From contig NW_024104554.1 in NCBI RefSeq assembly GCF_003945595.2, positions 4,447,242-4,511,241 on the forward strand: DNA of 64,000 nt, written 5' to 3'. Under the pieces are notes generated by a model, which worked only from the letters and a program-made list of their open reading frames with translations, was not told where the DNA came from and did not search any database. Origin of the DNA: Pipra filicauda (lineage: Eukaryota; Chordata; Aves; Passeriformes; Pipridae). This document shows, piece after piece, positions 3,765 to 62,441 of this stretch (position 1 is the stretch's first letter; each line of letters opens with the position of its first letter). The translations under genes were made by a program, and so were the position numbers.

Positions 3765-5876
3765 AGAATCCAAACTGAAAATATGTATATTGTTAGCATT
3801 GTTGTTACCGAGAAGCTACTTTGACATCAATGTTCAATTTTCCTGGTTTTTACTAAGCAGCTATTCATAAGCAGTCAAACTCCTCATTGGCTAGATAAGT
3901 AATAGCTTGTACACAGTCAGTTCTGAAAAACAACAGAATTTGTGCTAGCTAGCCCTCTATGGGAAAAAGAAAAAAAAACAAAACAACAAAACAACAGAAG
4001 AAATAATAATCCATACAAAAATCAGCACGACATAAGATAGGGAAAAAAACCCAATGTTTATGTACTTTTCTCCTTTCAAACCTCTTTCTTTTTTTTCTTT
4101 TCCTCTGCCCTCCTCACACACATCCTGATGGCTCTTCCCTCTTTTGTCTAGTGCTTCAGAGCACACAGTGTTTGCTTCTCAATAGTGCTATGCTCATTTT
4201 CTACTCCATTTTCTAGCTGCTGGCATTTTTCTCTTTTCCTTTTCCCTTTCCTATTAATGTCCAGGTGTTTCTTAAAGCTCACCAAGTTCTACTACACATA
4301 ATATCTTTAACTACCAACACTTTAGTACTATCCTGAAGGCTGTATTAGTATTTCATTCACAAGAATCAGCTGACTGTTATGAATTGTCTACATAGAGTGC
4401 CCTTACCCATTCAAAATAATATCCTAATTTCTTTTCTAAGAAAAACAGAAAACAAATATAAAAGTGCATCTTTTTTCATTTACATAGTTTATAATAAAAA
4501 TGACAGTAACAAAGTAGGGCGATTTCATAGGGGGCTGGGAGGAAAAGAAAGGTAAGTGGGAAATGCAGTATAAAACAAGAAGTCTTTTTTTTTCCCTGCA
4601 GTTTGCTGCAGAACTTTTTTTTTCCTCCTTCTTTTCCTTATTTTTTTCTAGACACGGTCCAGAAATCTAATAGTATATTCAAAGAGAAATTTTTTTATTC
4701 ATGTTTTTCTGTTATTCCCATTTTTCCTTCTTTAAAATGACTAAATGAGGACAAGTGTGGAAGTGAAGGACAAGTGGGAAGTCTCTTTCAAAGAGAAGAA
4801 ACTTCATTTCTGGCAAATATAGACAGTATAGGGTACAATCTGAATGAAGAAACAAAAAAACCCCAAACATTAGAAAAGAGGAGGCACTGTCTTTGGAGTA
4901 TTGGGAAAATGGGCACAAAACATGAAGATATTTCTCGTCCCAGATCCATTTACTACTGTATAAAAATCTGAAATATCCTATCTTGAAATAATTACACCAC
5001 AATCCAATTTATAACTTAGTCAGAGTAAATAATGTTCATGAACAAATGCAGGCAGTTCTACAGTTAGAACTGTAAATAACACATTAAGTATCAAAGACTG
5101 AAACACACCCTGTCACACAGGCCTGATGATACTTCCTCACTTCCCATCTCAATCTCTCACATTTTAACTCCACTGTTTCTCTTGTTGCGTCTCCCTCTCA
5201 CAATGACCTCCAGCATTTCAAGTCCTACATCCTTCCATAATATATGAGTTACTGGCTTCCACAAATAAAGGCAAAAATTACATTTTGACATAATTTAAGT
5301 AGGTGCTATATAAACTAGTTCCAGAAGTAAAACTGAGAATAGAGTAAAAAATAATTTTTCTAACTGTTAGAAGACTTTAATGTGGGCTATCAAGAAGGAT
5401 ATGCAATATAATATTTATCTATGCACATCTTGGACAAAGGAAAAGACAAGTGTAGGGCTGTGAAAAAAATATTTGCTTTCATTTGCCTGCTAGCAGTGTC
5501 CCGAATACGTGTGTTCCTTTCAAAGCCAGCAACTGAGCAGTTCAGAAAAAAGCAGCTGTTTATTTTTCCTGGAAGATGGAACCATCTGCAGTGAATGCAT
5601 CTGCAGTCCCCAACAAAACCTGTGAATTCTATGTACAAATATGCTTCTGACATAGCTGGGGCAAGGACCAGTATGCCCACAATAAAGAAGAATATGAGAG
5701 CAGGGGAAAGATGCACAAAAGCAATCACGCTTCAGAGATGATGAAAAGAAAGATATTTTTCCAGGGATCAGACAGGATCATCTATAATTTGCTGCAACTC
5801 AGGGAGCCTCTGAAAGTCACCAAGATAAGACCAAGACTAAAAGACTGACCTGTGAAGACACAGTTGGTGAGAGGAA
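3765..5876. other. Non-repetitive AT-rich DNA, no supported gene
   Basis: The stretch contains polypurine and polypyrimidine runs at about 3960-4130 and 4560-4660. The minus strand at 5390-5728 has a 112-codon open frame with an acceptor-like GCCCCAG inside it. No good donor and no recognisable domain were found, so it is not called as a gene. Confidence 0.4.
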
Positions 5877-6008
5877 GATGTGCTGTGTTCTGTTTCACCC
5901 AGCTGATGCATTTCTCTCTGCATTACTTACCTTGTTATGGTGATCAATAACAAGGTAAGTAATGCAGAGAGAAATGCATCAGCTGGGTGAAACAGAACAC
6001 AGCACATC
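5877..6008. repeat. 62-bp perfect inverted repeat with 8-bp spacer at an RTE 5' junction
   Basis: The left arm is 5877-5938 and the right arm 5947-6008. They are exact reverse complements, separated by GGTGATCA. The outermost right-arm bases (ACATC) overlap the first recognisable RTE bases. The left arm ends exactly at the end of the left copy of the RTE target-site duplication. The right arm therefore looks like an inverted copy of the host DNA upstream of the cut, added at the 5' end of the RTE during insertion. It could form a strong cruciform or hairpin. Confidence 0.92.
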
Positions 6009-6309
6009 AGCCTCGGCCATATTGATCACCACAACTGGTCTACTCTGGCCTCAAATCGGGAGGCCTGGAGACACACCATCTATAACACAGCTGTCTCCTT
6101 TGAGAACACACGCAGGATCACTCTCGAGGAGAAAAGGCAACGCAGAAAGAACTGTGTATTGCAGAATGCACCATCTAAGGAGTCTTTCTGCTGTGCCTTT
6201 TGCAATCGGATTTGTCTGTCACATATTGGCCTCATAAGCCACCAGCGTGCCTGTAGCAAATGTGGATAGAGCCTTCCCAAATCTTCGTTCGCGAAGCCCA
6301 GCCATGATG
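6003..6309 (+). mobile_element. RTE-clade LINE, short 3' insertion with 14-bp target duplication
   Basis: This is the last ~300 bp of an RTE-type non-LTR retrotransposon, homologous to the 3' end of the long element at 60984-64000. In frame it reads DHHNWSTLASNREAWRHTIY, later ITLEEKRQRRK, and ends in a cysteine/histidine segment (CCAFCNRICL...SHQRAC) with a stop at 6267-6269. A ~40-bp 3' UTR ends in AGCCATGATG. The 14-bp direct repeat ACTTACCTTGTTAT is present at 5925-5938 and 6310-6323 and is interpreted as the target-site duplication. Confidence 0.9.
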
Positions 6310-6323
6310 ACTTACCTTGTTAT
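6310..6323. repeat. Right copy of the RTE target-site duplication
   Basis: ACTTACCTTGTTAT here matches 5925-5938 exactly. It directly follows the RTE 3' end and is followed by an A-run. A third, inverted copy lies inside the right arm of the palindrome. Confidence 0.9.
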
Positions 6324-60850: not shown

Positions 60851-60983
60851 ATGAAAAAACAATGGTTTCCTGTGTTATTGTATTGCTATTTGCATTGCAT
60901 TAGTTCTGTGCAGCCTGTGTTTGGTCACAGTTTATGTTCTTGTGCCATGTTTAATAAAGTAATAGCAGATTAACATAGATATC
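60851..60983. other. Short unique spacer before the RTE element
   Basis: Contains TTTAATAAAGTAATAGCAG and nothing else of note. It directly abuts the RTE 3' end at ATCATGGCT. Confidence 0.4.
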
Positions 60984-61020
60984 ATGGCTAGGCTTTGCGA
61001 ATGAAGATTTGGAAAGGGCT

Positions 61021-61650
61021 CTACCCACTTTTGTTACAAGAACGCTGGTGGCTAAAAAGGCCAATACGAGATAGGCACATCCAGTTGGAAAAGGCACAGC
61101 AGAAAGACTCCATAGGTGGTATATTCTGCAAGGCACGATTCTTTCTGCATTGTCTTTTCTCCTCAAGAGTGATCCTGTGTGCTTTCTCAAAAGAAGCAGC
61201 AGCGTTATAGATGGTGTGTCTCCAGGCCTCCCGATTGGAGGCCAGAGTAGACCAGTTATGTTGATCAATATGGCCAAGGCTGAGATGTTGTTTCAGGGAG
61301 TCCTTGTATCTTCTATTTGGGGCTCCTCTCGTGCAGCAGCTGGTGGCGAGTTCACCATAAAGCAAGATCTTAGGGACGCGGTGGTCCTTCATCCTTGAGA
61401 CGTGCCCTTCCCAGCGCAGCTGTGTTCTCAGCAACATGGCCTCAATACTCGTAACTGCTGCCTGTTCTAGAACAGATGTATTGGTCACATAATCTGACCA
61501 GTGGATGTTTAGGATTGTACGGAGGCAGCGTTGATGGAAGCGTTCTAGGAGAGGCAGGTGGTGGCGGTAGATGACCCATGATTCAGATCCATATGAAAGA
61601 GTAGACAGTACAATGGCTTTGTAAACACTGATCTTTGTACTTTTCTTCAA
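61021..61650 (-). pseudogene. RTE ORF2 C-terminal region
   Basis: An open 209-codon stretch with KKSTKISVYKAIVLSTLSYG, ESWVIYRHHLPLLERFHQRC, QLRWEGHVSRM and, near the end, SFCCAFSNWMCLSRIGLFSH followed by QRSC, then a stop. The final cysteine/histidine segment is a finger-like motif of RTE proteins. Compared with the copy at 6.0 kb (CCAFCNRIC) the second Cys is Ser here. It is separated from the RT by frame changes at about 61650-61900. Confidence 0.88.
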
Positions 61651-61868
61651 ATGTTTATTTCACCAAACTCTTTTATGGAGTTTTCCCAAAGCTCTATATG
61701 CCTTTGCTAACCTGTTGTCTATCTCTCTGTTGATCTTACCGTCCAAGGAGATGAGGCTACCTAGGTAATTAAACTGTTGGACTGATTTGAGCACTGATTG
61801 GCCAATGGTGATATGGGGATGATGGAAGACTTTCTGAGGTGCAGGTTGATAGAGAACTTCTATCTTCT

Positions 61869-62441
61869 TTAAGCTGACTTCCAGCCCAAAAACTCAGCAG
61901 TGTCTGCGAAGCAGGATGTTAAACACTGCAGAGCTGCTTCTGTGTGGGCGACAAGGGCGGCGTCATCAGCATAAAGCAGCTCCCGGACAAGATGATTTAA
62001 GGTCTTAGTGTGGGCCTTCAGATGCCTTAGGTTGAAAAGGCTTCCATCAGTACGGTATCGAATGTAGATGCCATCCTGATCATCGAGGTCTGCCATGGCC
62101 CTTTGGAGCATCATGCTGAAAAAGACTATGAATAGGGTTGGTGCAAGAACGCAGCCTTGTTTTACACCATTGGTTATTAGAAAGGGCTCAGAAAGTGCAT
62201 TGCCATATCTGACTTGGCCGTGCTGATCCTCATATAGTGAGATGATCATTTTAAGGAACCTGGGGGGACATCCTAAACGCTCCAAAATCTGCCACAGACC
62301 TTTTCTGCTCACAGTATCGAAAGCCTTGGTGAGATCAACAAAGGCTACATAGAGACCTTTATTCTGTTCGCTACACTTTTCTTGCATTGTCTGAGAACAA
62401 ACACCATGTCTGTGGTACTCCTGTTGGCTCTGAAACCACAC
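61869..62441 (-). pseudogene. RTE ORF2 reverse transcriptase core
   Basis: It shows LYVAFVDLTKAFDTVSRKGL, GNALSEPFLITNGVKQGCVL and LLYADDAALVAHTEAALQCL, so the palm Asp and both YADD aspartates are present. The frame is lost after about 61895: the copy at 30.5 kb has AAAAAGCTCAG where this has AAAAACTCAG, a 1-base deletion. A second 1-base difference (TTGCATTGTC versus TTGCAGTTGTC) shifts the frame at about 62385. The residues before MQEKCSEQNKG are therefore out of frame. Confidence 0.92.

What the first reader, a model, noticed from the sequence alone, without database searches (positions are those of the whole stretch)
5877..6323. RTE insertion that copied its own target in inverted orientation (62-bp perfect palindrome ending at the target duplication)
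The RTE fragment (6003-6309) has a 14-bp target duplication (5925-5938 and 6310-6323). Between the left duplication and the element sits an exact inverted copy of the 62 bp of host DNA immediately upstream of the cut (5877-5938), ending precisely at the duplication boundary. The bases ACATC (6004-6008) are shared by the inverted copy and the RTE start. The simplest reading: the 3' end of the first-strand cDNA (ending GATGT) annealed to the host strand at 5877 and reverse transcriptase copied host DNA to the nick, a template jump from RNA to target DNA. The 8-bp filler GGTGATCA also matches the complement of RTE bases at about 6023-6030. I do not recall a described RTE insertion of this form.
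Basis: partly seen in the sequence, partly recalled or inferred. Interest (0 to 1): 0.8.

Follow-up and report, generated by a model that had tools for sequence, protein, structure and literature searches.

The report
Fold-back scar at a LINE insertion
When a bird jumping gene (an RTE-type retrotransposon) inserted here, the broken chromosome end most likely copied a little of the element's RNA, then folded back and copied 62 bases of itself, leaving a hairpin; a rare scar of the same kind has been reported for human LINE-1.

Summary
An RTE 3' fragment (6007-6309) lies between identical 14-bp target duplications. Between the left duplication and the element sit GGTGATCA and a 62/62 exact inverted copy of host DNA that ends at the duplication boundary. 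The fragment belongs to a young AviRTE-like family whose 24-base 3' end has 694 exact genome matches.

The ACATC overlap disappears: 53 of 54 copies read AACATC before TCAGCC, so the overlap is TC. Copying from the cDNA side should also stop at the first nick (5924), but the copy runs to the second (5938).

Better reading: the top-strand 3' overhang (...GTTAT) primed on RTE RNA as in twin priming, copied 11 nt, snapped back on itself (3 bp, 8-nt loop), copied its own strand for 62 nt, then joined the RTE cDNA. GTTATGGTGATCAATA is RTE antisense, 16/16 to a reference copy. Sister copies show inversions, micro-inversions and one 6-nt fold-back.

It is a known kind: PMC10191854 reports fold-back duplications upstream of human L1 target sites (n=3; n=1 with an inversion too). 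Template switching after insertion and assembly error are not fully excluded; no empty site or reads were available.

The parts
5877..5938 (+). host DNA that served as template for the inverted copy (left hairpin arm)
   Evidence: 62/62 complementary to 5947-6008
5925..5938 (+). left target-site duplication ACTTACCTTGTTAT; inferred 3' overhang of the top strand
   Evidence: identical to 6310-6323; begins with A as in 31 of 38 sampled duplications
5939..5946 (+). spacer/loop GGTGATCA, antisense RTE
   Evidence: complement of 6023-6030; with 5934-5938 and 5947-5949 gives a 16-base antisense RTE match, 15/16 to this copy, 16/16 to reference copy L050
5947..6008 (-). inverted copy of host 5938..5877 (right hairpin arm)
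6007..6309 (+). 5'-truncated 3' end of an AviRTE-like LINE; 6007-6008 (TC) shared with the inverted copy
   Evidence: aligns to the last 303 bases of a ~4.6 kb copy at 96.7%; junction compared with 53 other copies
6020..6035 (+). RTE site whose RNA is the inferred template of the twin-priming step
   Evidence: complement of 5934-5949
6310..6323 (+). right target-site duplication

Best explanation
A single complex 5' junction made during target-primed reverse transcription of an AviRTE-like LINE. (1, inferred) The minus strand was nicked at 5924/5925 and primed first-strand cDNA, which reached RTE position 6007. (2, inferred) The plus strand was cut after 5938, leaving a 14-nt 3' overhang ending GTTAT. 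(3, sequence match shown, step inferred) That end annealed to ATAAC (or ACAAC) in RTE RNA and was extended by GGTGATCAATA: twin priming that stopped after 11 nt. (4, inferred) The new 3' end ATA snapped back onto TAT (5936-5938) with an 8-nt loop and copied its own strand from 5938 to 5877; 5877-5924 was double-stranded, so this needed strand displacement or resection. Which polymerase did it, the RT or a host enzyme, is unknown. (5, inferred) The 3' end ...ATC joined the RTE cDNA through TC and the second strand was completed. The product is a hairpin scar; no function is implied.
For: The hairpin lies between the two copies of the duplication, so it is not older than the insertion. The inverted copy begins at the last base of the duplication and includes it whole, as priming from the top-strand 3' end requires. 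GTTATGGTGATCAATA is antisense RTE, 15/16 to this copy and 16/16 to the reference copy; T at the differing base is carried by 44 of 54 copies. The 11-mer GGTGATCAATA occurred in 1 of 2000 shuffles of this copy's tail and 1 of 300 shuffles of the whole element. The copied filler overlaps the non-inverted RTE start by 24 bases; in four sister inversions (L031, L035, L037, L038) the two starts lie 3-23 bases apart. Antisense RTE next to the 5' junction is seen in 9 of 61 copies: L016, L031, L035, L037, L038, L062, L081, L099 and this one. In L023 the whole 6-base extra segment is a fold-back copy of its own flank with a 4-base loop (0 of 2000 random segments; one of eight loci tested). Age fits: 2 to 5 private changes in 303 bases predict about 0.8-2 differences between CpG-free 62-base arms; 0 were seen. 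Precedent: human L1 fold-back plus inversion (PMC10191854).
Against: No empty-site ortholog and no reads. Only one host fold-back of this length was found in the sample, and hairpins are not more frequent at junctions than in 3' flanks (arms >=10 in 2 of 59 against 5 of 273 windows; arms >=8 in 13 of 59 against 44 of 273). The bare 8-mer filler is less rare (20 of 2000 and 40 of 300 shuffles). The second priming site mismatches this copy's own sequence at one of five bases, so a different RNA molecule or a tolerated mismatch is needed. L016, L062 and L099 have inverted pieces far from the non-inverted start. In human L1, 132 of 287 inversions lie within 20 bp; a 24-base overlap is just outside that.
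Confidence: 0.7

Rival explanations
1. Template switching after insertion: the RTE inserted with a plain 5' junction, and a later replication or repair error copied 11 bases of RTE and 62 bases of host in inverted orientation.
For: The same templates would give the same sequence; arms and duplications are identical, so the event could be younger than the insertion.
Against: The first switch would have to fall, by coincidence, on the last base of the duplication and the last at the RTE start. Inverted RTE pieces at sister junctions (9 of 61 with this one) show that antisense copying happens at insertion in this family.
Confidence: 0.12
2. One reading: the first-strand cDNA 3' end jumped from RNA to host DNA at 5877, copied the host minus strand to 5938, then gained the filler and joined the left end.
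For: By symmetry the same letters can be written from the other side; the filler could then come from a further switch that ends in ATAAC and pairs with the GTTAT overhang.
Against: The minus strand is the first-nicked strand, so the template should end at 5924; the copy runs to 5938. The claimed GATGT annealing needs two lost bases relative to 53 of 54 copies.
Confidence: 0.12
3. Assembly or library artefact (chimeric fold-back read).
For: Fold-back chimeras are a known library artefact (recalled). No reads were available to check.
Against: The boundaries coincide with biological landmarks (duplication end, RTE start) and the spacer is RTE-templated. The site lies inside a 5.08 Mb contig, with no N in the window or in the 299,887 fetched bases.
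Confidence: 0.05

Closest known systems
Human somatic L1 insertions with short fold-back inversion 5' of the target site (PMC10191854; section 11 read)
   Same: Inverted duplication of host DNA just upstream of the target site, attributed to extra DNA synthesis of around 52-220 bp; one event (n=1, 0.1%) also has an internal inversion, which is the combination proposed here. 62 bp falls in that range.
   Different: L1 rather than RTE, somatic human cells rather than a bird reference genome; I saw no sequences of those events, so base-level similarity is untested.
Twin priming (5' inversion) of LINEs (PMC12016303 passages; PMC4245944 sections 10, 14, 16 and passages)
   Same: Second cDNA primed by the top-strand overhang on the element's RNA, with homology at the joint; overlap between the two cDNAs is common in human L1.
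   Different: Only 11 bases of inverted element here, followed by host sequence. PMC4245944 saw 5' inversion only for human L1 in human cells, none in chicken DT40 cells for the elements it tested.
Fold-back inversions at yeast double-strand breaks (PMC11724301; abstract and passages)
   Same: A 3' end folds back on short inverted homology, copies its own strand, and is captured by the other end with 0-5 bp (median 2) of homology; here the far joint has 2 (TC).
   Different: Nuclease break, no retrotransposon; most events there are under 14 bp, range to about 150; the hairpin there used 10-bp imperfect repeats and a 41-nt loop, here 3 bp and 8 nt.
AviRTE of birds and filarial nematodes (PMC4844689; passages)
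   Same: ORF about 3.2-3.3 kb, short 3' tail, 13-bp duplication in the paper's example against 14 here, many copies in a bird-like genome.
   Different: No AviRTE sequence was available to compare, so identity is inferred from architecture. That paper found no intact full-length copy in the assemblies it sampled; here one long copy has an open 1098-aa frame.

Membership tests
RTE-clade LINE (AviRTE-like) | APE-type endonuclease plus reverse transcriptase in one ORF | tested here: met
   long copy L050: Exo_endo_phos 1.7e-12 and RVT_1 1.2e-34 over a 1098-aa ORF
RTE-clade LINE (AviRTE-like) | short 3' tail with trinucleotide repeat and duplications of about 10-16 bp that start with A | tested here: met
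   copies end CCATGATG(ATG)n; 38 duplications of 9-16 bp, 31 starting with A
RTE-clade LINE (AviRTE-like) | sequence identity or phylogenetic placement with AviRTE | not tested
   no AviRTE sequence or tree was used; the name rests on architecture and passages of PMC4844689
Twin priming | inverted element segment directly after the left duplication, with homology at the joint | tested here: met
   11 bases after GTTAT; 16/16 antisense match to L050, 15/16 to this copy
Twin priming | inverted segment joined directly to the non-inverted element | tested here: not met
   62 bases of inverted host DNA lie between them; this is why the fold-back step is added
Fold-back inversion at a break | inverted copy of the flank starting at the broken end, short loop, short homology at the far joint | tested here: met
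   copy starts at 5938, 8-nt loop, TC at the far joint
Insertion-time origin | empty site without the hairpin; no plain RTE allele | not testable with these tools
   no relatives of this genome are held; the search for an allele in the assembly did not complete

The most novel reading that the evidence does not exclude
RTE-clade retrotransposition in birds regularly leaves the RNA after a few bases of twin priming and uses the nascent chromosome end as its own DNA template, so hairpin scars and micro-inversions are a standing by-product of this element and a steady source of new genomic palindromes.
Probability: 0.15. Interest if true: 0.6.

Novelty: new member of a known kind. Interest (0 to 1): 0.42.

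Why it matters
It is a base-resolved record of how a chromosome end may behave during LINE integration: RNA-templated extension, release, self-priming and capture can be read in order. If right, it extends a structure reported in a handful of human somatic L1 events to an RTE insertion in a bird reference genome, and the sister copies indicate that this RTE family makes twin-priming inversions. The family is young and abundant (694 exact matches of its 3' end), so frequency and mechanism could be measured from assemblies.

Tried and rejected
Palindrome present before insertion: rejected, because it lies between the two duplications. The ACATC overlap: rejected against 53 of 54 copies. Insertion too old for identical arms: tested, no conflict. 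Chance filler: unlikely for the 11-mer (1 of 2000 and 1 of 300 shuffles), but the bare 8-mer alone turns up in 20 of 2000 shuffles of this copy's tail and 40 of 300 of the whole element.

More hairpins at RTE junctions than elsewhere: not shown. Exact arms >=10 in 2 of 59 junction windows against 5 of 273 control windows; >=9 in 4 against 19; >=8 in 13 against 44. In 224,270 bases of other loci (overlaps included) 21 inverted repeats with arms >=15 were found; I saw 12 rows, 11 from one TA-rich tract in L018 and one at the RTE start of L062.

Limits of the survey: of 69 distinct copies, 8 began within 20 bases of the fetched end, 23 had no duplication scoring >=9 under my rule, and 38 were classed: 24 with at most 2 extra bases, 9 with 3-60, 5 with more. 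L035 and L038 are among the 23, although one search shows an 11-bp duplication for L038. L039 has antisense RTE hits upstream that look like another insertion and were not counted. Extra segments in L098 and L085, and 371 nt in L062, gave no convincing RTE match. The copies were chosen by similarity to this one or by contig order, not at random.

Literature: ten paper searches were answered. No title or abstract start listed there describes an RTE insertion of this form, but most listed papers were not opened. Two look-ups were not held. Kajikawa 2012 and Gilbert 2005 are known to me here only through citing text and reference lists.

Full report
WHAT IS THERE. The window lies in an unnamed 1.08 Gb assembly of 1549 contigs (G000:C905:4447242-4511241). 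At 5877-6323 the order is: host; left duplication ACTTACCTTGTTAT (5925-5938); GGTGATCA (5939-5946); an exact inverted copy of host 5938..5877 (5947-6008, 62/62); RTE 3' end (6007-6309); right duplication (6310-6323). It is the only exact inverted repeat in the window with arms >=15 and spacer <=60. As single-stranded DNA it folds at -77.7 kcal/mol; 200 shuffles average -15.2 and none folds as well.

THE ELEMENT. The fragment aligns to the last 303 bases of a ~4.6 kb copy at 96.7%. That copy, L050, has a 1098-aa ORF with endonuclease and reverse transcriptase domains. In ORF size, tail and duplication it resembles AviRTE, described with a ~3.2 kb ORF, ~800 bp 5' UTR and ~40 bp 3' UTR (PMC4844689, passages); I had no AviRTE sequence to compare. 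The 24-base 3' end has 694 exact genome matches, 347 on each strand. In a 40-copy alignment, 19 copies equal the majority of the 39 others exactly over 303 bases, so the family is young; these 40 were the best matches to this copy, not a random sample. This copy differs from the majority at 10 of 303 positions; two changes are unique to it and three more are shared with one or two others, three of these five at CpG. At 2-5 private changes in 303, two CpG-free 62-base arms would differ at about 0.8-2 places, so zero differences is no argument either way.

CORRECTING THE OBSERVATION. Of 54 copies that reach this point, 53 read AACATC before TCAGCC and only this one reads AGCACA. The RTE part therefore starts at 6007 and its overlap with the inverted host copy is TC. 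The filler match is longer than stated: GTTATGGTGATCAATA, which takes in the last five bases of the duplication and the first three of the inverted copy, is antisense RTE, 16/16 to the reference copy L050 and 15/16 to this copy, which carries C where 44 of 54 copies carry T.

HOW IT MOST LIKELY AROSE. The duplication implies a first nick in the minus strand at 5924/5925 and a second in the plus strand after 5938, so the plus-strand 3' end was ...GTTAT. That end can pair with ATAAC in RTE RNA, and extension gives GGTGATCAATA: twin priming that stopped after 11 bases. Its last three bases, ATA, can pair with TAT at the end of the duplication; self-primed synthesis from there copies 5938 back to 5877, the observed arm. 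The new 3' end ...ATC then joined the RTE cDNA through TC. The sequence matches are shown; the steps are inferred. Template switching after insertion would need its switch points to fall on the duplication end and the RTE start by coincidence.

IS THE FAMILY PRONE TO THIS? I had 69 distinct copies, from loci. In 61 the RTE match began at least 20 bases inside the fetched DNA; 38 of these had a duplication scoring >=9. Antisense RTE next to the 5' junction occurs in L016, L031, L035, L037, L038 and L062 and as very short pieces in L081 and L099; with this locus that is 9 of 61. In L031, L035, L037 and L038 the inverted piece starts 3-23 bases from the non-inverted start; in L016, L062 and L099 it starts hundreds of bases or more away. 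Here the two overlap by 24 bases. L023 has a six-base extra segment that is wholly a fold-back copy of its own flank with a 4-base loop; 0 of 2000 random segments reach that, in a test of eight loci of which the other seven show a run of 0 or 1. L062 has a 21-bp hairpin with a 9-nt loop at its RTE start, which looks like a fold-back of element DNA rather than host. Counting hairpins alone gives no enrichment at junctions (2 of 59 against 5 of 273 windows with arms >=10), so the case rests on anatomy, not on frequency.

COMPARISON WITH THE LITERATURE. [quoted passage not shown] The present locus fits the combined type. PMC11724301 (abstract and passages) describes fold-back priming at yeast breaks, from 2 to about 150 bp with most under 14, and a median of 2 bp homology at the far joint. 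PMC12016303 (passages) gives the spacing of twin-priming ends in human L1: 132 of 287 within 20 bp, overlaps with a median of 12. PMC13295347 (passages) describes RTE-clade duplications that start with A downstream of a T run; here the duplication starts with A after a TTT, as A starts 31 of 38 and TTT precedes 25 of 38 sampled. PMC4245944 (section 16) saw no 5' inversion in chicken DT40 cells for the elements it tested, so inversions in this RTE family are worth noting. No title or abstract start in my ten answered searches describes an RTE insertion of this form.

VERDICT. A real insertion scar, best read as interrupted twin priming followed by fold-back synthesis (0.7). It is a new member of a known, rare kind. 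An empty-site ortholog and long reads remain the direct tests; neither was available.

Noticed in passing
window 60981-62000, minus strand: A second, more diverged copy of the same RTE family (85% over 311 bases); its reading upstream of the tail continues to at least 62000.
   Followed up: partly
L050 125-3421, minus strand: One long RTE copy has an uninterrupted 1098-aa endonuclease/reverse-transcriptase frame, and 19 of 40 aligned tails are identical to the majority, which suggests recent activity; PMC4844689 passages report no intact copy in the assemblies it sampled.
   Followed up: partly
L062 552-1368 (oriented with RTE on +): A very complex insertion: antisense RTE from far upstream (ref 379-769), 371 nt without a convincing RTE match, then a 21-bp hairpin at the start of the sense RTE part.
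   Followed up: partly
L081 709-738 and L099 857-890 (oriented with RTE on +): Micro-inversions at the 5' junction: the duplication ends GGGTG and CC continue into 5 and 12 bases of antisense RTE.
   Followed up: yes
L006 1414-1436 and L014 1469-1504 (oriented with RTE on +): Other 5' junctions with patched extra bases; L014 looks like a short sense RTE piece (ref about 4081-4103, 87% over 23) joined to ref 4293.
   Followed up: partly
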